From Streptomyces sp. WM4235 (GTDB lineage: Bacteria; Actinomycetota; Actinomycetes; Streptomycetales; Streptomycetaceae), in assembly GCF_001279725.1 (NCBI RefSeq), contig NZ_LGDE01000338.1, positions 1-59,783 of the forward strand: a stretch of 59,783 nt of DNA, in the 5' to 3' direction. Below, piece after piece: positions 13,307 to 22,271 of this stretch (its first letter is position 1; every line of letters begins with the position of its first letter). The position numbers and the translations under genes are program-made. The notes beneath the pieces were generated by a model, which was not told the DNA's origin, did no database searches, and saw only the letters and a list, made by a program, of their open reading frames with translations.

Positions 13307-14479
13307 TTGGCGGGTTCTGCCGACTTCGACCTGTACCGCCCGGCCGAGGAGCACGACATGCTCCGCGAGTCGGTCCGCTCGCTCGCCGAGGCGAAGATCC
13401 TGCCGTTCGCGGCGGCGGTCGACGAGGAGTCCCGCTTCCCGCAGGAGGCCCTCGACGCCCTGGTCGCCAGCGACCTGCACGCCGTCCACGTACCCGAGAC
13501 CTACGGCGGCGCCGGCGCGGACGCGCTCGCCACCGTGATCGTGATCGAGGAAGTGGCCCGCGTCTGCGCGTCCTCCTCCCTCATCCCGGCCGTGAACAAG
13601 CTCGGCTCGCTCCCGGTGATCCTCTCCGGTTCCGAGGAGCTCAAGGCCAAGTACCTCGGCCCGCTGGCCAAGGGCGACGCGATGTTCTCGTACGCCCTCT
13701 CCGAGCCCGACGCGGGCTCCGACGCCGCCGGCATGAAGACCCGCGCCGTGCGCGACGGCGACTTCTGGGTGCTCAACGGCGTGAAGCGCTGGATCACCAA
13801 TGCCGGCGTCTCCGAGTACTACACGGTCATGGCCGTCACCGACCCGGAGAAGCGCTCCAAGGGCATCAGCGCCTTCGTCGTCGAGAAGGGCGACGAGGGA
13901 GTCTCCTTCGGCGCCCCGGAGAAGAAGCTCGGCATCAAGGGCTCCCCGACGCGCGAGGTCTACCTCGACAACGTCCGCATCCCCGCCGACCGCATGATCG
14001 GCGCCGAGGGCACCGGATTCGCCACCGCGATGAAGACCCTCGACCACACCCGCATCACGATCGCCGCCCAGGCGCTCGGCATCGCGCAGGGCGCCCTGGA
14101 CTACGCCAAGGGCTACGTCCAGGAGCGCAAGCAGTTCGGCAAGCCGATCGGCGACTTCCAGGGCGTGCAGTTCATGCTCGCGGACATGGCCATGAAGATC
14201 GAGGCCGCCCGCCAGCTGACGTACTCGGCGGCCGCCCGCTCGGAGCGCGTCTCCGGCGGAGGCCCTCACGAGGACCTGACGTTCTTCGGCGCCGCGGCCA
14301 AGTGCTTCGCCTCCGACGTGGCCATGGAGGTCACGACCGACGCCGTCCAGCTCCTCGGCGGTTACGGCTACACCCGTGACTACCCGGTGGAGCGCATGAT
14401 GCGCGACGCGAAGATCACGCAGATCTATGAAGGCACGAACCAGGTCCAGCGGATCGTCATGGCCCGCAACCTGCCGTAG
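13307..14479 (+). CDS. fadE: Acyl-CoA dehydrogenase
   Basis: 390 residues, FAD flavoprotein that oxidises acyl-CoA to trans-2-enoyl-CoA in beta-oxidation or branched-chain acid breakdown. Motifs: YALSEPDAGSDAAGMKTRA, WITNAGVSEYYTVMA, RKQFGKPIGDFQGVQFMLAD, LLGGYGYTRDYPVERMMRDA, and catalytic Glu in IYEGTNQVQR. TTG start at 13307 with GGGGAG nine bases before it. The last codons (QRIVMARNLP) lie in a 34-bp sequence repeated at 17987-18020 and, decayed, at 20958-20991, so this gene end appears to have been used as an insertion site that keeps the gene intact. Confidence 0.93.
   Translation: MAGSADFDLYRPAEEHDMLRESVRSLAEAKILPFAAAVDEESRFPQEALDALVASDLHAVHVPETYGGAGADALATVIVIEEVARVCASSSLIPAVNKLGSLPVILSGSEELKAKYLGPLAKGDAMFSYALSEPDAGSDAAGMKTRAVRDGDFWVLNGVKRWITNAGVSEYYTVMAVTDPEKRSKGISAFVVEKGDEGVSFGAPEKKLGIKGSPTREVYLDNVRIPADRMIGAEGTGFATAMKTLDHTRITIAAQALGIAQGALDYAKGYVQERKQFGKPIGDFQGVQFMLADMAMKIEAARQLTYSAAARSERVSGGGPHEDLTFFGAAAKCFASDVAMEVTTDAVQLLGGYGYTRDYPVERMMRDAKITQIYEGTNQVQRIVMARNLP
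14445..14478 (+). repeat. Left copy of the 34-bp direct repeat (attL-like)
   Basis: Bases tccagcggatcgtcatggcc and the following 14 are identical to 17987-18020. This copy is the end of fadE, stopping one base short of the complete TAG codon. Confidence 0.9.
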
Positions 14480-14580
14480 CAGGTTTTTCGCAGGTCATCC
14501 GCTGTCTCGGGTGATCGGGGAGCGGCTGTCGGCTTCCGGTCCGCTCGGGTCCGTTCCGGGCCGTCCTCGGGCGTCATGCC

Positions 14581-14593
14581 GGGGGAATCCTGG
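14581..14593 (+). repeat. 13-bp repeat gggggaatcctgg, left copy
   Basis: Exact match to 17909-17921, in direct orientation, inside the left end of the putative element. Possible arm-type recombinase site; could also be chance. Confidence 0.4.
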
Positions 14594-14625
14594 CCGGACA
14601 CCGGGCTGGAAACCGGCTGCAAGTG

Positions 14626-14660
14626 AAGTCCCCCGTACCCGACAAGGGTGCGGGGGACTT
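14626..14660. terminator. Terminator downstream of fadE / leftmost element gene
   Basis: Stem AAGTCCCCCgtACCC (14626-14640) and GGGTgcGGGGGACTT (14646-14660) with loop gacaa; two mismatched internal bases. It separates fadE from the convergent gene at 14687-15115. Confidence 0.75.
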
Positions 14661-14686
14661 CTGTATTTCCGCCCATGGGGTCTCGG

Positions 14687-15115
14687 CTAGGCGTTGTAGA
14701 GCGTAGGACGTTCCGCCACCTGGTTCGGTGTCAGCCCTTCGACAGTCAGGTTCCCCGTCCAGAGCTGGTCACGGTTGGCGTACGTCGAATCGAAGCGGAC
14801 GCGCTTACCGCCCGGCTCCAACTTCCACCTCTGTTCTTGGAATTGCGCGATACGGTCGCTGCCGCACACGAATGCCCGGGTTGCCTGAGTGAGCACCCAT
14901 TGAGCCGGCTCGGTCTCGCCGGCCGTGGGCCGCCCGCAGTTGCGGGCCATCTGCCACAGGCGCGGCCACTCGACCCCGGGAGTCAGCGGGCCGATGACGG
15001 CCACGTCTCCGATCCGCCGTTCGTCGAGGTGGTGCGTGGCGTACCCGAAGACCACGCCGAACATGGCGAAGACGGTGACCCTGCCGCTCCCGGTCAGACC
15101 CTCATCAGATGGCAT
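14687..15115 (-). CDS. Hypothetical protein of the putative element (142 aa)
   Basis: Not recognised. 142 residues from an ATG preceded by AAAGG 8 bases upstream. The N-terminal part has one moderately hydrophobic stretch (VTVFAMFGVVFGYA, about 13-26); the rest is soluble with many Trp and Arg. A terminator-like hairpin (15135-15173) lies between it and the upstream trio, so it probably has its own promoter. It is the last gene before the left repeat. Confidence 0.55.
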   Translation of the reverse strand: MPSDEGLTGSGRVTVFAMFGVVFGYATHHLDERRIGDVAVIGPLTPGVEWPRLWQMARNCGRPTAGETEPAQWVLTQATRAFVCGSDRIAQFQEQRWKLEPGGKRVRFDSTYANRDQLWTGNLTVEGLTPNQVAERPTLYNA

Positions 15116-15134
15116 GGGCGGTACCTTTGCTCAG

Positions 15135-15173
15135 AGTGGGACCCGGGCACCTGTGACGTGTCCGGGTCCCACT
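15135..15173. terminator. Hairpin after the small-protein trio
   Basis: Stem agtgggacccgg (15135-15146) with ccgggtcccact (15162-15173), 15-base loop. On the - strand it lies after the 146-aa gene and before the 142-aa gene. Confidence 0.65.
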
Positions 15174-15231
15174 TCGTACGAGCGGATCACGCCGTGATCC
15201 GTGTGTTGGGGCGAGTCAGCGGGTCAGCGAG

Positions 15232-15672
15232 TCAGCAGCCGTCGCCGTCGCCGCAGCAGGCCGGCTGGTTGCACTCGGCGGTGGTACCCCACAGCCGGGC
15301 GTCGACCTCGAACCCGGCGGCCGCGACGCGGTCGGCCACCGACACCATCAGCGGGCGCGTTCGAACCCTGGCGTTCGGAGAGTGGTGGACGAAGTAGCCG
15401 AACTGCTCCTGACACCAGGCGGCGTACTCCTGCGTGTGGAGCATGAACGAGTGCCAACCGGGGTCCACCCGCTCACTGGGCGCCATGTCGTACGCCTTCT
15501 GGCTGCCCAGGACATACACGAAGGCGATGGCCTGATCCATCACGCGATCGGCCACGACTCGCTCAAGGCCGTACTCGTCCGCGCAGAACGCGGCCAGCCG
15601 CTCGAACAGCTCGGGGCTGACAAGGTCCCGCCCGTGCCGTAAGGCGACGGGGCTTTCCACCACGGTCGTCAT
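15232..15672 (-). CDS. Conserved hypothetical protein with a Cys-rich C-terminus
   Basis: 146 residues. Motifs PGWHSFMLHTQEYAAWCQEQ and FGYFVHHSPN resemble a small actinobacterial family related to glycine-rich-domain (GRDP-like) proteins that share WHxFxLxTxxY and a HHxP pair. The last residues ECNQPACCGDGDGC hold four cysteines in 14 positions, suggesting metal binding. Function unknown. ATG overlaps the stop of the upstream 99-aa gene (ATGA), so the trio 16153-15232 is translationally coupled. Recurrence of this family in Streptomyces accessory regions is from memory and uncertain. Confidence 0.6.
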   Translation of the reverse strand: MTTVVESPVALRHGRDLVSPELFERLAAFCADEYGLERVVADRVMDQAIAFVYVLGSQKAYDMAPSERVDPGWHSFMLHTQEYAAWCQEQFGYFVHHSPNARVRTRPLMVSVADRVAAAGFEVDARLWGTTAECNQPACCGDGDGC

Positions 15673-15968
15673 CGTGCGACTCCTTCTGTCGATGGGTCTC
15701 GCTGCCCGCCCTGGCGGGGCGGGGGGCTATGCCAGGGCGCCTCGACCCGATGAACAAGGGCGACGTCCTCGAACCCTCGGAGGAAGCGGCCGTGACCGGC
15801 GTTCAGGCCCGTGTGCGTCATGCACTGTCGATCCACCTCGGCCACATCGGGGCCGGGAACGGCAGCCCAGCCGCACTCCGCGTAGAGGCAGCTCGCGACC
15901 GTGGTGGGCGTGCACTCGGGGTCTCTGAGGATCCGGTGCTCGGCGTATCGGATGACGGAGCGCGTCAT
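15669..15968 (-). CDS. Small DUF7848-like protein (99 aa)
   Basis: 99 residues, MTRSVIRYAEHRILRDPE at the start and GHGRFLRGFEDVALVHRVE later, a layout I associate with DUF7848 proteins of Streptomyces phages and islands (central cysteines, then a HTxxxGHxRFxR element). Start at 15968 was chosen because this ATG overlaps the upstream stop (ATGA); a start at 15995 would add nine unrelated residues. Function unknown. Confidence 0.6.
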   Translation of the reverse strand: MTRSVIRYAEHRILRDPECTPTTVASCLYAECGWAAVPGPDVAEVDRQCMTHTGLNAGHGRFLRGFEDVALVHRVEAPWHSPPPRQGGQRDPSTEGVAR

Positions 15969-16153
15969 CGGCGCGACCCGTCCGCGTTGACGCAACGGGT
16001 GTGCCAGTACGCGACCTTCGGCGGCCCGTCCTCACCCGCGAGCGTCCCCCGCCGGGCGAGTTGGTGAAGGGGGATGGGCATGTTGCACGACGGGCACGTC
16101 TCGTGCTTTTCCGTGTAGGTCGCGTACTCGAACGTGTCCGTCTTGGTCGCCAT
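15965..16153 (-). CDS. Small zinc-ribbon-like protein (62 aa)
   Basis: 62 residues, MATKTDTFEYATYTEKHE start. A CPSCNMPIPLHQL element and a later WHTRC give a CxxC...HxxC arrangement, likely one zinc site. ATG at 16153 follows AAGGGG at 8 bases. First gene of the coupled trio; role unknown. Confidence 0.6.
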   Translation of the reverse strand: MATKTDTFEYATYTEKHETCPSCNMPIPLHQLARRGTLAGEDGPPKVAYWHTRCVNADGSRR

Positions 16154-16220
16154 TGCGCACCCCTTCGCCGCTGTCTCCGGGAATCGACAGCCAATGGTGG
16201 CCGGGGGGCGGGGGCAGGTT

Positions 16221-17051
16221 CTAGCCGGTTTCCTGCTCGCGCAAAAGCTCGTCTCGGATGGCTTCGAGCATGGCCCGCATGACGTCACCGGATACTGCCA
16301 TCGCGGCGAACCCTTCGAACTTGGCTACGTACAGGGCGACGTCCCTAGGGTCGGTAACCACCGTCTCCGCGTGGACCGTCTCAATGGTTACCGTGCGTTC
16401 GTCCCTGATGGAGAACGAGTGGCCAGGAAAGTCCACCTGTGGGGTCGACAGGGCGACGACTCGGATATCCACGTTGGGCAGCCGAGAGGCAGAGATCAAT
16501 CGGTCGAGCTGCCCCACCATCATCAAGGGCGGGATGATGCGCCACCGCAGGACCGATTCCGTGATGATGAAACGGAAGGCCTTCCCTTCCGAGTACAGAA
16601 CACTTTGACGTGCCAGCCTCGCACCGACGGTGCGCTCCAGCTGTTCATCTGTCAGGTTCCTTCGGGCAAAAACCGCCCGCACATATTCGGGTGTCTGAAG
16701 CAGGCCGGGAACGAGTGAGGGCTGAAATAGACGCAGTAGGGCTGTTTGCGATTCAAGGGCCTGTACCTGTTGTTGTTTACGGCTGTAGCCCAATCGGCGA
16801 ATAAGTCGCCACGCTGTGACTTCCGTGGCCGCCTCTCTGGCAGCAGCCATGTACTCGGCCTTTACCCCATCCGATACGCCTATGGCCGTGAGGATGCAGT
16901 CGACGTCTGTGACGCTGGGCGCTGTGTTCCCGTTCTCAATCTTGGATAGCTTGGAACAAGACATGGCAGCGCCACGGGCAACCGCCTTCGCTTCCTTCCC
17001 GGAAGACTCACGCAGTTCCCGCAGCGCTGACCCAAGGCTAGACTTATTCAC
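16221..17051 (-). CDS. XRE-family regulator with DUF5753 domain (WhiJ/Scr1-like)
   Basis: 276 residues. Helix-turn-helix at about 5-62 (SALRELRESSGKEAKAVARG, then SKLSKIENGNTAPSVTDVDC); DUF5753 ligand-like domain from about 85 (FQPSLVPGLLQTPEYVRAVF) to the end. GTG at 17051 overlaps the upstream stop as GTGA; an ATG at 17072 would extend it by seven residues. Such regulators are multi-copy in Streptomyces and usually sit beside small partner proteins. Here the partner-like genes are the two upstream genes in the same coupled cassette. The target is probably its own promoter. Confidence 0.85.
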   Translation of the reverse strand: MNKSSLGSALRELRESSGKEAKAVARGAAMSCSKLSKIENGNTAPSVTDVDCILTAIGVSDGVKAEYMAAAREAATEVTAWRLIRRLGYSRKQQQVQALESQTALLRLFQPSLVPGLLQTPEYVRAVFARRNLTDEQLERTVGARLARQSVLYSEGKAFRFIITESVLRWRIIPPLMMVGQLDRLISASRLPNVDIRVVALSTPQVDFPGHSFSIRDERTVTIETVHAETVVTDPRDVALYVAKFEGFAAMAVSGDVMRAMLEAIRDELLREQETG

Positions 17052-17575
17052 TCGCCGTACTTCGCCCACCATTCAGCGAAGGGCACGGCTTGAGCCATAG
17101 CCGTGTCCCTGTACGCCAGGAACCTGGACAGCTGATCTTCTCCGAGGAAATCGGCACCCAGGTACTTACCCTCCGCGTCGTAGTTCATGGCTCCGATGAC
17201 TCGCTCATCGAAGAGCCAGAAATCCGGTGCATCCGCGATCGGGTTTTCCTGGTTGGTCGTGTCCAGGATGAAGAATTCTTCCCCGGCGGCCATGTTGCGA
17301 CGGTAACCCCAGGAAAGTTCGAAGCGCAGGTAATTCGTCAGTGGACGGGCGAGGATGTGCACGCGGTAGATTCGCCTTCCCGACTGGACCGCGTCCCCGA
17401 CCGTCGTCATCCATCCTGCGGTCTTGTAATCCTCTGGCTGTGGATCACCGGCAAGGAATGCTTGGTAGGCGTCAACGCCACCCGATTTGCTGTAATCATC
17501 CAGAGTCTCCAGTCGGAACGCCTCCCGACTGAAGTTGTTGAACCAATCCCCCAGCGTCTTAGATGAGGTTGTCAC
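17048..17575 (-). CDS. DUF6879-like protein
   Basis: 175 residues. LGDWFNNFSREAFRLETLDDY at the start (first Trp/Phe-rich helix), YRVHILARPLTNYLRFEL in the middle, FWLFDERVIGAMNYDAEGKYLGA later; this matches my memory of DUF6879, a family found next to XRE regulators in actinobacteria. GTG at 17575 has AAAGG 8 bases upstream; the longer frame to 17695 is unlikely because it would overlap the 63-aa gene completely. It overlaps that gene by 17 bases and the regulator by 4. Biochemical function unknown. Confidence 0.75.
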   Translation of the reverse strand: MTTSSKTLGDWFNNFSREAFRLETLDDYSKSGGVDAYQAFLAGDPQPEDYKTAGWMTTVGDAVQSGRRIYRVHILARPLTNYLRFELSWGYRRNMAAGEEFFILDTTNQENPIADAPDFWLFDERVIGAMNYDAEGKYLGADFLGEDQLSRFLAYRDTAMAQAVPFAEWWAKYGE

Positions 17576-17750
17576 GAATGGCCTTTCGGATGAGCTCGAT
17601 AGGGATTTCCACCATGGTTTCGTGAGCTGGAATCTCCTGCCCGTGGTCCGCCACGCGGGCCCCCTGTACGACCAGCGTGCCTCGATCGGTCGCAAAGATG
17701 GTGGGACACTCGCCCTCGTCGCACTGGCCTACCAGTCGTGTCAGCTTCAC
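17559..17750 (-). CDS. 63-aa conserved small protein leading the regulator cassette
   Basis: 63 residues, GTG start with GAGGGGG about 8 bases upstream. CDEGECPTIFATDRGTLVVQ is a two-Cys beta hairpin followed by an acidic/amphipathic helix (VEIPIELIRKAIRDNLI). Small proteins like this often precede DUF6879 genes; I infer it is part of the same unit. Could be a DUF397-type companion in function, but the sequence is not DUF397. Confidence 0.65.
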   Translation of the reverse strand: MKLTRLVGQCDEGECPTIFATDRGTLVVQGARVADHGQEIPAHETMVEIPIELIRKAIRDNLI

Positions 17751-17821
17751 GGCCTGCCCCCTCGTCGTCGGGTGTCGCGTCCGATGCTCGCGGCTCCCAA
17801 CCCGAGGAACAAGGGGTTCGA

Positions 17822-17839
17822 GTTTCCGTTACTGGAAAC
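17822..17839. promoter_or_regulatory. Candidate operator GTTTCC-N6-GGAAAC
   Basis: Perfect 6-6-6 inverted repeat, 72 bases upstream of the 63-aa gene that starts the XRE cassette. Spacing of the half sites (12 bases centre to centre) suits an XRE dimer on one DNA face. Confidence 0.5.
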
Positions 17840-17908
17840 CGGGCCAGTCCCCTAGTCTCGGCCGAGGATCAGCAGGGGCCCGGGCTGGACGCCGAAGCTT
17901 GTGATCAT

Positions 17909-17921
17909 GGGGGAATCCTGG
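17909..17921 (+). repeat. 13-bp repeat gggggaatcctgg, right copy
   Basis: Exact direct match to 14581-14593, lying inside the right end of the putative element. Confidence 0.4.
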
Positions 17922-17986
17922 GGACGTCCCACGTCAGAGGGCGTCTGTGCAGGTGGAGACCGTATGAGCTGTAGAGCGCGCAGATC

Positions 17987-18020
17987 TCCAGCGGATCGTC
18001 ATGGCCCGCAACCTGCCGTA
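17987..18020 (+). repeat. Right copy of the 34-bp direct repeat (attR-like)
   Basis: Identical to 14445-14478 over all 34 bases. The nine bases cgcagatct just before it (17979-17987) also match 14418-14426 in fadE, as if 19 bases of the gene end were missing here. After the repeat comes a TAA and a terminator, which look like the original tail of fadE. Confidence 0.9.
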
Positions 18021-18065
18021 ACGACCCACTCGACGTCCCACGGGCGACGTTCCACGACGACGTCC

Positions 18066-18104
18066 CACGACGGCCCCGGCACGACGCGCGCCGGGGCCGT
18101 CGTG
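18066..18104. terminator. Strong hairpin, probable original fadE terminator
   Basis: 15-bp perfect stem (18066-18080 with 18090-18104; CACGACGGCCCCGGC) and a 9-base loop, 46 bases after the right 34-bp repeat. It also faces the end of the - strand gene at 18119. Confidence 0.8.
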
Positions 18105-18118
18105 ACGCCCGCCCGGGC

Positions 18119-18322
18119 TCAGAGCAGGTGGTCGGCCTTGCCTGCCTTGATGTCCCGGATCAGCTGCCGGAGAGCGTCGCCGCTGTCGCTGAGGTAGGTG
18201 TTCTCCTGGCCGGCGACGGCGATGTAGCTGTTCCCGTCCGCGTCGGTGCCGATGCGGTAGCAGTTGTTGCCCTCTCCACAGAAGGCGTCTTCCCAGTCGA
18301 TGTCGTGCACGACGTTCCTCAC
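18119..18322 (-). CDS. Small DUF397-like partner of the XRE regulator (67 aa)
   Basis: 67 residues, MRNVVHDIDWEDAFCGEGNN start. The size, the opening FCGEGNNCYRIG element and the position directly after an XRE/DUF5753 gene fit the DUF397-type small proteins of WhiJ-like clusters, although the match to the family core is loose. GTG at 18322 overlaps the regulator stop (GTGA). In known XRE-DUF397 pairs the small protein modulates its regulator; here this is inference. Confidence 0.65.
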   Translation of the reverse strand: MRNVVHDIDWEDAFCGEGNNCYRIGTDADGNSYIAVAGQENTYLSDSGDALRQLIRDIKAGKADHLL

Positions 18323-19170
18323 AGGTCCGTGGCGATCGTGTGGATGAACTCGCGGGACCCTTGAGGGGACAGCGCCGCCTTGTTCATCCACTCCAGATGA
18401 CTCCAGTATTTGGCCAACTGGGCTTCTGCGTGCATGAAGACAGGGCCGTGCGCGGTATCGAGTTGAGTCGTATCGAGGGCCTTGACGGGGCCTTCGGCGT
18501 AGAGCACGGCGTTGCCGGCGCCCGGAAAGATCCCCAACTCGACCGGCAGCACTCGGAGCGTGATGTGTTCCCGTTCGCCCTGATCGTTCAGAAACTGAAG
18601 CTGGCGCCGCGTGGCTGCTCGACCACCGAACTGCATGCGTAGGGCTGCTTCATGGACGTAGCCGACGTACGGGGTCAATTTGCCGCCTTCAAGGACCTGT
18701 TGCCGAGCATTGCGCTGGGCAACTCGCAACTCCACGTCCAGACGGCGAAGTTCCGGCAGCACCGCACCGAAGATGGCGCGCGCGTAGTCCTCGGTCTGGA
18801 GCAGGCCGGGAATGTGTACGGTCTGGGCCGTGTGTAGTCGAGTGGCGTGCCACTCCAGTTCGGCGATGTCGAGAAGACCTGGTGGCACCTTCCCTCGATA
18901 CTCGTCCCACCAGCCACGCGAGCGGGGCTGCGCGATGTCCACCAGCGCGTCGACGTAAGCCGCGTCCGTGCACGAACAGTTGTCGGCCAGGGTGCGCAGC
19001 CGGTCTGCGCTGAGCGTCCGGACGCCGGACTCGATGTTGGAGATCTTCCCCCGGTCCAGGCCCAGGAGCGCCGCGGCGGCGTCGGCCGTCATTCCGGCCG
19101 CCATCCGCATCCGTCGCAGTTCGGCACCCAGCCTCGTCTGTCGGTACGTCGGTGTCGTTCTCGGTGGCAT
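18319..19170 (-). CDS. XRE-family regulator with DUF5753 domain (WhiJ-like)
   Basis: 283 residues. HTH at about 10-65 (GAELRRMRMAAGMTADAAAA, DRGKISNIESGVRTLSAD), linker with RSRGWWDEYRGKVPPGLLD, DUF5753 core from QTVHIPGLLQTEDYARAIF to the end. Start at ATG 19170 (MPPRTTPTYRQTRLG) rather than TTG 19197. It is divergent from the ATPase-like gene at 19367, and the three genes (small partner, regulator, anti-sigma-like) form the set known from whiJ/abaA-type clusters of S. coelicolor. Confidence 0.85.
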   Translation of the reverse strand: MPPRTTPTYRQTRLGAELRRMRMAAGMTADAAAALLGLDRGKISNIESGVRTLSADRLRTLADNCSCTDAAYVDALVDIAQPRSRGWWDEYRGKVPPGLLDIAELEWHATRLHTAQTVHIPGLLQTEDYARAIFGAVLPELRRLDVELRVAQRNARQQVLEGGKLTPYVGYVHEAALRMQFGGRAATRRQLQFLNDQGEREHITLRVLPVELGIFPGAGNAVLYAEGPVKALDTTQLDTAHGPVFMHAEAQLAKYWSHLEWMNKAALSPQGSREFIHTIATDL

Positions 19171-19228
19171 ACCCGCAGTCTGCCGTGACGCCTCCAAAGA
19201 ACCAAGGTGATCAGAGTGTCACTGAAGT

Positions 19229-19246
19229 GGTGGTGTATTAACCACC
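19229..19246. promoter_or_regulatory. Candidate operator GGTGGT-N6-ACCACC
   Basis: Perfect 6-6-6 inverted repeat in the divergent region between the XRE gene and the ATPase-like gene. The centre is A/T-rich (gtatta) in otherwise G+C-rich DNA. Same geometry as the dyad at 17822 but different half sites. Confidence 0.5.
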
Positions 19247-19366
19247 CCATGTCCTACGCTTTGTGATGCAGCGCTCACGCAAGGGAGTTGAAGCGCACCG
19301 GTTCGCCCTGCCCACCGACAGAACGAACCGACAGGCCACGCCTCCCGCTCACCCAAGGAGTCAGCG

Positions 19367-19843
19367 ATGTCCGCAACCGTCACCGCCTGCCACGCAGAGC
19401 CCGCCCCCACCTCGTACGCGCCACCCTCCCCTTCCGCCCTCAGCTACAGCCTCACCCTCCCCGGTGAGCCTTACAGCGCGGCCCTCGCGCGCAGGACCGT
19501 CGCGTCGGTGCTCCGGACGCACCGCCTGGACGCACTCGTGGCGGTCGCCGCCCAGGTGACGGGCGAACTCATGGCCGCCGGCTGGCACAGCAGCCCGGGA
19601 GACGGCCTGTACCTCTCCGTCCGCTACCGGGACGACTCGCTCCGCCTGATCGTCTACGACGCCCACGCGGCGCACCCGCACCCCCGCCTCGCCGCGCTCT
19701 GCGAGGCTCGCCGGCGAGGGCATCTGAGGGTCCTCGCCGCATTGGTACGTGACTGCGAGGGGGAATGGGGTTTCGGCCCGGCCCGGGAACCCGGCGGCGG
19801 CACCCGGACCTGGGCCACGCTGCCGTACCGCGCAGCCGCCTAG
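19367..19843 (+). CDS. Degenerate HATPase (anti-sigma-factor-like) protein
   Basis: 158 residues with an AAGGAG ribosome binding site six bases before ATG. The part from LSYSLTLPGEPYSAALARRT to the C-terminus follows the SpoIIAB-like layout found in abaA-type clusters: helix, N-box helix, beta strands YLSVRYRDDSLRLIVYDAHA. The N box reads VTGELMAAGW and lacks the usual ELVxNAxRH, so ATP binding is doubtful. It is divergent from the WhiJ-like regulator and probably under the same operator. Confidence 0.6.
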   Translation: MSATVTACHAEPAPTSYAPPSPSALSYSLTLPGEPYSAALARRTVASVLRTHRLDALVAVAAQVTGELMAAGWHSSPGDGLYLSVRYRDDSLRLIVYDAHAAHPHPRLAALCEARRRGHLRVLAALVRDCEGEWGFGPAREPGGGTRTWATLPYRAAA

Positions 19844-19931
19844 CCGCCTAGCCGCGCAGCCGCACAGCCGCACAGCCGCGTCAACGCGGAAAGCCCCCGC
19901 CGCAGCGGGGGCCTCGTCCCAAGGTTCACAG

Positions 19932-20271
19932 TCACAGACGGCCGACGGCGCCGGCGGGGTCGTCCAGCCAGACCCGCCGGCCGTCGCCGTCGCCATCGAC
20001 ATCGACATCGACCGACAGGCCGAAGCGGGACCGCTCCGGCTTCCCCAGGTCGTGCCAGCGCAGGAACGCCTCGCGCACCTCGTCCCACAGCGCCCGGGGG
20101 CCGTACTGCTCCACCTCGTACGTCCGCGCGTCCGGGACGTACTCCACGGTCGCCCACGACCTGCCGTCATCGGCGAAGAACCACAAGGTGGCCTCGCCGC
20201 TGTCGTCATCCGCGTCGCACCACCTGAACCACGCGTCGGTGACGCCGATGTTGCACGGGCTTGCATGAGAA
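19932..20271 (-). pseudogene. C-terminal fragment of a SAM-dependent (isoaspartate-type) methyltransferase
   Basis: The frame reads CNIGVTDAWFRWCDADDD then a WFFADDGRSWATVEY phrase, EQYGPRALWDEV and DRFGL-like RSRFGLSVDVDVDGDG, ending VWLDDPAGAVGRL. This is like the C-terminal extension of Streptomyces protein-L-isoaspartate-type (including FxLD-system) methyltransferases, from memory. No catalytic SAM domain and no good start precede it; the frame begins right after the stop of the DUF5753 remnant. I read it as a leftover of a larger gene. Confidence 0.55.
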
Positions 20272-20829
20272 CTATCCGAGAGCGGTGATCGCTTCCGAGA
20301 TCAAAGCGCGGGCGGGACCACCGTGAACGGCGATCTTGGACAGTTCGGAGAAGGCTTTCGCGTAGGTGGCGACCTCGCTCGGCGCCGAGACGTTCACGGC
20401 GGCCGTCAGTAGTTCGACGCTCGCCTGCCGGCTGTCGAACAGGTAGAAGGCCTCCAACGGCCAGACAAGCCTCTGAGCCGTGAAGGGGATCACTCCCAGG
20501 CTGACATTGGGCAGGGCCATGAGCGCCAGCAGGTAGCCGAGTTGGCCGGCCATCGTGGCGTCGTCGCCGATGCGGTAGCGGAGCACCGTTTCCTCCAAGA
20601 GCAGGCCGAACCGGTGGTCGCCCTCATGGAGGACGCGTGAACGCTCAACCCGGGACGCGGCTGCTGCTTCCGAGTCGTCCGGAGTTCCCTGGAAGGCGGC
20701 GATGGTGGACAGCAGAGCTGCCGCGTACCCCTCCGTCTGGAGCATCCCCGGGACGACGTTGGAGCAGTACACACGGAAATGACGGGTTCCCTCATACAGG
20801 GGAACGACTTCCTCTTGCGCCCTGCGCAT
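20272..20829 (-). pseudogene. Truncated XRE regulator: DUF5753 part only
   Basis: From MRRAQEEVVPLYEGTRHF, through NVVPGMLQTEGYAAALL and LLEETVLRYRIGDDATMAGQ, to ISEAITALG this is a normal DUF5753 domain, but the helix-turn-helix is missing. Upstream of 20829 the frame continues without similarity and soon runs antisense through the fadE 3' scar (20936-20992). An ATG at 20829 exists but has no ribosome binding site. Likely the stump of a third XRE gene cut by a deletion at the insertion site. Confidence 0.65.
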
Positions 20830-20935
20830 CCCGTGGACCGGAGGGGCAGGCAGGCGATGAAGAAGGAAACCCGGACAAGCTCCTCCGCGAGGGTGCCCGC
20901 GCGGCCCGGAGTGAGGTGTGCCGTAAAGCACTCCG

Positions 20936-20992
20936 ATCCACGAGGAAACCACCCAGGTCCAGCGCATCGTCTGGGCTCGCGACCCGCCCTGA
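20936..20992 (+). pseudogene. Decayed copy of the fadE 3' end
   Basis: Reads IHEETTQVQRIVWARDPP and stop, aligned with IYEGTNQVQRIVMARNLP of fadE. Over the 34-bp repeat region (20958-20991) 26 of 34 bases match. A two-base gap just upstream destroys the frame. It is a scar of an earlier state of the fadE end, 6.5 kb from the living gene. Confidence 0.75.

Positions 20993-21100: not shown

Positions 21101-22271
<1,171 letters not shown>

What the first reader, a model, noticed from the sequence alone, without database searches (positions are those of the whole stretch)
14445..20992. The fadE 3' end is a repeatedly used insertion site: three generations of the same gene end
The last 34 bases of the acyl-CoA dehydrogenase gene recur exactly at 17987-18020 and, with 26 of 34 bases kept and the peptide QVQRIVWARDPP plus stop, at 20936-20992. 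Between the copies lie regulators, small unknown genes and gene stumps; outside them is core chromosome. The arrangement fits site-specific integration into a protein-coding 3' end that restores the gene each time, with an older event now decayed. I know of several Streptomyces attB sites, but not of one in the end of an acyl-CoA dehydrogenase gene.
Basis: partly seen in the sequence, partly recalled or inferred. Interest (0 to 1): 0.85.

Follow-up and report, generated by a model that had tools for sequence, protein, structure and literature searches.

The report
Gene end reused by integrating elements
The tail end of a fat-burning enzyme gene in Streptomyces is a landing site for a family of phage-like mobile DNA elements, and this window holds the broken remains of what look like two such landings side by side, with the gene kept whole.

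Summary
Observation confirmed, interpretation supported. The three fadE ends are best read as scars of two integrations. The exact 34-mer is the only one repeated on the window's + strand. Both flanks of the young insert (14480-14599, 17851-17986) match the two ends of an integrase-bearing element at the same site in another Streptomyces. All 48 loci found with that tyrosine integrase have it 60-310 bp behind fadE, facing it. In an even draw, at least 51 of 392 Streptomyces genomes have the element's left arm directly behind fadE; 14 have a full-length integrase there, 12 pieces, 25 (the window included) none. The closest relative joins fadE directly to the side behind copy 2; three others join it to the side behind copy 3. 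One genome holds a tandem of two elements. Exchange is inferred at CAC(G/C)CAGAT, so the element supplies fadE's last ~18 codons. The largest elements carry a capsid gene and look satellite-like. No fadE attB was found in the open-access papers searched. Unresolved: the old element's left border and any present mobility.

The parts
13307..14479 (+). fadE, acyl-CoA dehydrogenase (390 aa), target gene; its last ~18 codons are probably element-derived
   Evidence: Pfam PF00441, PF02770, PF02771; left/right copy comparison
14416..14424 (+). CACGCAGAT, inferred strand-exchange (overlap) region
   Evidence: Inference from other loci: most often identical 8-mer between left and right copies, 31 of 43 pairs (the window's own pair was not used there)
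14425..14479 (+). fadE 3' end copy 1 (attL side)
14480..14613 (+). left arm (attL) of the young element, CAGGTTTTTCGCAGGTCA...
   Evidence: About 71-85% identical to the same position behind fadE in other elements (L158 85% over 14480-14599, L157 81% over 14480-14593); arm score 15/17
14687..15115 (-). 142-aa protein of unknown family, young cargo
   Evidence: No Pfam match; homologues in elements L115, L155, L157
15232..15672 (-). 146-aa protein of unknown family, young cargo
   Evidence: No Pfam match; relatives in 194 of 392 genomes, four of the closest within 6 kb behind fadE
15669..15995 (-). DUF7848 protein
   Evidence: PF25232, 33.6 bits
16221..17072 (-). HTH_31 + DUF5753 regulator, young cargo
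   Evidence: PF19054, PF13560
17048..17575 (-). DUF6879 protein, predicted PLD-like fold
17559..17750 (-). 63-aa protein, first gene of the right-end cargo operon
   Evidence: ORF; similar ORF end beside the right fadE copy in L082
17851..17986 (+). right arm (attR) of the young element
   Evidence: 81% to L158, and 79% to L157 over 17903-17986, directly beside their right fadE copies; 33 of 44 to the G326 arm
17979..18020 (+). fadE 3' end copy 2 (attR, native end) with a 19-nt internal deletion
18066..18104 (+). fadE-terminator-like hairpin, now behind copy 2
   Evidence: Inverted repeat I9; similar hairpin directly behind fadE in G167
18119..18391 (-). small protein beside the XRE gene, DUF397-like by position only
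   Evidence: No Pfam match
18319..19197 (-). HTH_31 + DUF5753 regulator, old block
   Evidence: PF19054, PF13560; 81% DNA match in L042
19367..19843 (+). 158-aa protein, old block
   Evidence: ORF; matches in L042 and L036
19932..20245 (-). truncated relative of a gene that lies behind fadE in L071 and L143
   Evidence: 81% and 85% DNA identity over ~240 nt
20251..20847 (-). truncated HTH-DUF5753 gene of the old element
   Evidence: DUF5753 111.4 bits; 80-82% DNA identity to L115, L155, L159, all elements bracketed by fadE ends
20916..20937 (+). decayed right arm and overlap of the old element (GTGTGCCGTAAAGCACTCCGAT)
   Evidence: GTAAAGCAC shared with many other right arms
20929..20992 (+). 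fadE 3' end copy 3 (oldest attR)
   Evidence: Profile score 37.2 against a reverse-strand maximum of -5.4; aligns with fadE ends of L035/L045/L067 and on towards the NTP-transferase gene
21101..22183 (+). NTP_transferase gene, conserved chromosome beyond the site
   Evidence: PF00483 (on the longer ORF); fadE neighbour in the clade

Best explanation
The last ~60 bp of fadE are the attB of a family of Streptomyces integrative elements with their own tyrosine integrase. Exchange occurs at or near CAC(G/C)CAGAT. The element's attP carries the last ~18 codons of fadE plus stop, so fadE stays complete (other codons, nearly the same protein), while the native end and its terminator are pushed to the far side. 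The integrase gene lies just inside the left arm, facing fadE; a regulator pair (XRE-DUF5753 + DUF6879) is common, usually towards the right end. Elements decay by internal deletion and the site stays usable, so new elements add on the fadE side. In the window an old element lost its attL and most genes but keeps a truncated regulator and attR (copy 3); a younger one, also without integrase, lies at 14480-17986 between fadE and copy 2. Shown here: recurrence, arms, integrase coupling, empty sites, a tandem elsewhere. Inferred: the exact overlap, that this integrase acts on this site, transfer by phage.
For: 48 of 48 integrase loci (33 about full length, 15 partial) lie 60-310 bp behind fadE, 43 of them 204-222 bp. 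At least 51 of 392 genomes have the attL arm at fadE, all 51 re-read from fetched DNA; the reversed control pattern matched in none of the 392 rows. 49 of 85 arm-bearing loci have the second fadE end inside the held DNA. Window arms match integrase-bearing L158 and L157 on both sides. Empty sites: G167 for the young insertion, L035/L045/L067 for both. Left and right copies differ mainly at third codon positions right of CACSCAGAT. Tandem in G326: copies at +13139 (followed by an attL arm, 16/17) and +18646. The old regulator remnant is 80-82% identical to those of three fadE-bracketed elements. The integrase is PF00589 / PHROG integrase.
Against: The window's assembly (478 contigs) shows no integrase of this family, so nothing shows mobility today. 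Behind copy 2 stands a native-type terminator, not the old element's attL arm, which simple stacking does not predict. The old block 18113-19838 matched only L042 and, in part, L036, neither with a second fadE end; L042 has the blocks in the other order. L116-L118 have the young cargo behind fadE without arm or copy. 36 of 85 arm-bearing loci show no second fadE end in the DNA held (often only ~11 kb); L162 has a copy without a recognisable arm. 12 of 43 pairs are not identical over the best 8-mer, some third positions elsewhere (-28, -22, -16, -7) are just as constant as -55, and the window's pair was not among the 43, so the overlap is not proven.
Confidence: 0.93

Rival explanations
1. Homologous or illegitimate recombination: foreign DNA carrying a fadE end and its downstream genes was joined by one homologous crossover in fadE, leaving the old end behind; no site-specific enzyme.
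For: No integrase in the window's genome; L116-L118 show the same cargo behind fadE without arms.
Against: Shared arms on both sides in many species, a nearly constant start of the right copy at CACSCAGAT, and an integrase found only next to the site are not expected.
Confidence: 0.04
2. Only the young segment is an integration; copy 3 is a fadE remnant unrelated to the elements.
For: Copy 3 is diverged (26 of 34), the old element's attL was not found, and the old block 18113-19838 was seen in no fadE-bracketed element.
Against: Copy 3 has GTAAAGCAC in front and the ancestral NTP-transferase leader behind, and the neighbouring truncated gene belongs to fadE-bracketed elements elsewhere.
Confidence: 0.1
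3. The short integrase-less elements are not decayed but are non-autonomous islands moved in trans by an integrase of a co-resident element.
For: 25 of 51 occupied sites show no integrase near fadE, several with near-perfect repeats (L115 39/39, L082 38/39); the G326 tandem pairs an integrase-bearing element with one where no integrase was matched.
Against: L065 keeps pieces of a DUF3987 gene and the cargo of full-size L058, L157 a fused ORF that lacks the capsid region: these look like deletion products. The window's attR has lost 19 nt of the repeat.
Confidence: 0.25

Closest known systems
Actinomycete integrative and conjugative elements (AICEs) and their accretion in Streptomyces (PMC9513070; passages read)
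   Same: Site-specific insertion, direct-repeat scars, several elements stacked at one site, decayed remnants, protein-coding genes among the sites
   Different: The accretion case read is at a tRNA-Arg gene; no TraB/FtsK was recognised in the 7 of 16 ORFs of full-size element L058 that were scanned
PAISt of S. turgidiscabies, inserted at the 3' end of bacA (PMC4057263; start of abstract in a search listing)
   Same: Site-specific insertion at the 3' end of a protein gene in Streptomyces
   Different: 8-bp palindrome target, large island with virulence genes, other gene
Capsid-forming PICIs and the Mulch/Flayer satellites of Streptomyces (PMC10690885; passages read)
   Same: Small element with capsid gene; MulchRoom also has a tyrosine integrase, an HTH and an Lsr2-like protein
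   Different: No terminase or portal recognised in the L058 ORFs scanned; no helper known; 'attB' and 'attP' do not occur in that paper's main text
XRE-DUF397 regulator pairs of Streptomyces (PMC10364602; passages read)
   Same: The cargo XRE genes have the same HTH + DUF5753 architecture
   Different: Here the frequent partner is DUF6879

Membership tests
Site-specific integrative element (tyrosine recombinase type) | Direct repeats of the target at both ends | tested here: met
   Window 14425-14479 and 17979-18020; 49 of 85 arm-bearing loci
Site-specific integrative element (tyrosine recombinase type) | Own integrase next to the attachment site | tested here: not met
   Not met for the window, so it is filed as a relic; met in 14 of 51 occupied genomes, and all 48 integrase loci lie at the site
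Site-specific integrative element (tyrosine recombinase type) | Relatives with an unoccupied site | tested here: met
   G167, L035, L045, L067
Site-specific integrative element (tyrosine recombinase type) | Excision or integration activity | not testable with these tools
   Needs an experiment
AICE | TraB/FtsK translocase and AICE replication protein | tested here: inconclusive
   None recognised in 7 of 16 listed L058 ORFs (Pfam and/or PHROGs); the other 9 (all 104 aa or less, or the regulator and DUF6879 genes) and other elements were not fully scanned
Capsid-forming PICI (cf-PICI) | Integrase | tested here: met
   L058; not the window
Capsid-forming PICI (cf-PICI) | Major capsid protein | tested here: met
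   L058 PF25209/phrog_267, L154 PF11651/phrog_283; L058-type capsid gene in 4 of 49 complete elements; not the window
Capsid-forming PICI (cf-PICI) | Portal, terminase, head protease, connectors | tested here: inconclusive
   None recognised in the 7 of 16 L058 ORFs scanned; a scaffold protein weakly recognised; other elements not fully scanned
XRE-DUF397 pair | DUF397 partner above Pfam cut-off | tested here: not met
   Window 18119-18391 no match; an L154 protein 18.3 bits, cut-off 24

The most novel reading that the evidence does not exclude
The fadE elements are an undescribed, genus-wide family of Streptomyces phage satellites that encode their own capsid and replication protein but borrow packaging and tails, use attP-borne codons to keep fadE intact, and leave behind XRE + dead-PLD-fold regulator cassettes that become lasting host genes in tandem layers.
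Probability: 0.45. Interest if true: 0.75.

Novelty: new member of a known kind. Interest (0 to 1): 0.6.

Why it matters
It adds an attachment site occupied in about one in eight of the Streptomyces species sampled, with an integrase found only there, hence a candidate for a new integration vector. It links XRE-DUF5753/DUF6879 regulator clusters to mobile-element remnants (relatives of such XRE genes affect antibiotic production, PMC10364602), and it offers a readable series from intact element to relic.

Tried and rejected
Chance repeat: rejected. Gene duplication or homologous recombination: unlikely (arms, integrase). tRNA target: none found in the window. Origin of the young insert: one partial plasmid hit (NZ_CP108097.1, 28% covered, 73.7%), no phage hit. 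Integrase and capsid have only <60% relatives in the phage collection, the top rows 32% and 34%; scans of viral contigs gave 1 and 2 loci. Defence: PADLOC gave only weak HTH-type matches for two of ten window proteins. DUF6879 profile against PDB sequences: best E 0.084. Published fadE attB: the listings name none; of their papers I opened only PMC7890619 (passage: a phiC31 pseudo-attB in an S. rimosus acyl-CoA dehydrogenase gene). 'acyl' does not occur in the main text of PMC9513070 or PMC3218068; PMC9513070 lists 14 protein-coding insertion sites in a supplement that I did not see, so fadE could be among them. The copy scan used a threshold spoilt by a real inverted copy in L219 and was redone. 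L054 is a weak hit inside another gene and was dropped (41 became 40 of 134).

Bias: L031-L090 and L131-L150 were picked by fadE similarity, L111-L130 by cargo homology or fadE, L151-L198 by integrase, L207-L246 by attL arm or integrase. Only the 51 of 392 is an even draw, and it is a floor (arms with more than 3 mismatches are missed, such as G085). I set 10 of the 61 matching genomes aside by eye because the matched letters do not resemble a fadE end. The 12 'pieces' include two loci cut by contig ends (L222, L242), and G290's piece, 4 kb off, counts as none. Named and unnamed collections overlap (L151 and L243 are one contig by length), so 48 and 51 are not independent.
Full report
1. Observation. 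The last 34 bases of fadE (14445-14478) recur exactly at 17987-18020, and a diverged copy with stop lies at 20936-20992. It is the only 34-mer found twice on the window's + strand. Between the copies lie three HTH-DUF5753 or DUF5753 regulators (one truncated), a DUF6879 protein, a DUF7848 protein and small unknown genes. No integrase was recognised there and none of this family in the genome.

2. Empty sites. The protein search found fadE in 381 of 392 Streptomyces genomes. I fetched fadE with up to 18.5 kb behind it for 60 of them. In 21 relatives and the window, fadE is followed, same strand, by the same NTP-transferase gene at 117 to 6,625 bp, the window being the longest. None of the 22 relatives scanned has an extra fadE end within 8.5 kb. 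The closest, G167 (L031, fadE protein 100%), joins fadE directly to the sequence and hairpin that stand behind copy 2 in the window. L035 and L067 align through copy 3 into the NTP-transferase gene in one piece (84% and 81%); L045 does so in the alignment. So copy 2 is best read as the native end displaced by the young insertion, and copy 3 as an older displaced end.

3. The site recurs across the genus. Of 86 fadE loci (85 fetched and the window), 10 including the window have a second fadE end downstream at 32-39 of 39; the other 76 reach at most 27. With a profile and more loci it is 40 of 134. Left arms (TAGCAGGGTTTTCGCAGGTCAG) and right arms (TATGRCCTGTAAAGCAC) are shared. The window has both: 14480-14599 is 85% and 17851-17986 81% identical to the ends of the integrase-bearing element L158. 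Copy 2 has a 19-nt deletion inside the repeat, so its attR is probably crippled (inference).

4. The integrase. L058 (11.6 kb element) has an open tyrosine recombinase just inside the left arm, facing fadE. A scan of one genome per species (GTDB 220) with this protein returned 48 loci, all titled Streptomyces, 33 about full length and 15 partial. In 48 of 48 the integrase lies 60-310 bp behind fadE, 43 of them at 204-222 bp. In the 392-genome draw, relatives at 82% identity or more occur in 22 genomes, and the next hits are at 37%. Against the coordinates, 20 of these 22 are within about 310 bp of an attL match; G085 has an altered arm, G290's piece is 4 kb off.

5. Rate. The attL pattern matched in 61 of 392 genomes, its reversed control in none. 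I set aside 10 whose letters do not resemble a fadE end. The remaining 51 were all read from fetched DNA (the window among them), and all 51 have the arm (13/17 or better) directly behind fadE (and the loci). Of these, 14 have a full-length integrase within 2.5 kb, 12 pieces, 25 none.

6. Exchange point. Among 50 loci with a copy, 43 pairs with at least 44 of 57 matching bases were used (7 dropped, the window among them). Left and right copies differ mainly at third codon positions from -52 onward, little at -58 (0.86) and -55 (0.93); the 8-mer most often identical is ACGCAGAT (31 of 43). Third positions -28, -22, -16 and -7 are as constant, so -55 (a CAG codon) says little; the weight rests on -58 and on the abrupt loss of similarity left of -63. 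I infer exchange at CACSCAGAT, so that the fadE end to its right is element-derived. In 4 of 43 left copies fadE ends CAG TAG, an extra glutamine; the right copies of L058, L059, L065 and L151 lack it, which fits, although L168 has CAG in its right copy.

8. The old element. The truncated regulator 20251-20847 is 80-82% identical to those of L115, L155 and L159, which are bracketed by fadE ends. Copy 3 keeps GTAAAGCAC. Its left border is unresolved: a native-type terminator, not an attL arm, follows copy 2, and the block 18113-19838 was seen in no bracketed element. A tandem exists in G326: fadE end, element with integrase (13.1 kb), fadE end followed by an attL arm, second element (5.5 kb, no integrase matched), fadE end. 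Only the window and G326, of 160 unique loci, have two downstream copies.

9. Literature. Accretion and decay at one site are known for Streptomyces AICEs (PMC9513070, passages), so the principle is not new. A fadE attB was not named in the listings, within an open-access library only.

Noticed in passing
L219 (G023), about 4.1 kb behind fadE: A fadE end copy in inverted orientation, 52.4 on the profile, suggesting an inversion inside an occupied site.
   Followed up: partly
L244, L218, L234, L190: Second fadE ends only 216-614 bp behind fadE: micro-relics with almost nothing between the scars.
   Followed up: no
L042 (G173), 2.2-5.7 kb behind fadE: The window's old cargo blocks occur in the opposite order, behind a membrane-protein-like gene and without a detectable second fadE end.
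   Followed up: partly
L116, L117, L118 (G335, G116, G155): The 142/146-aa + XRE + DUF6879 block lies behind fadE in three other species without arm or repeat.
   Followed up: partly
NZ_CP108097.1 209804-210743: A stretch 73.7% identical to the window's 142/146-aa gene region on a 304-kb Streptomyces plasmid.
   Followed up: no
L154 versus L058: Different capsid protein families (PF11651 versus PF25209) in elements whose integrases are 94% identical: possible swapping of the capsid module.
   Followed up: partly
window 16221-17750 and elements L082, L089, L115, L058: DUF6879 next to XRE-DUF5753 is a recurrent pair; DUF6879 is predicted as a PLD-like fold with no invariant histidine or lysine.
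   Followed up: partly
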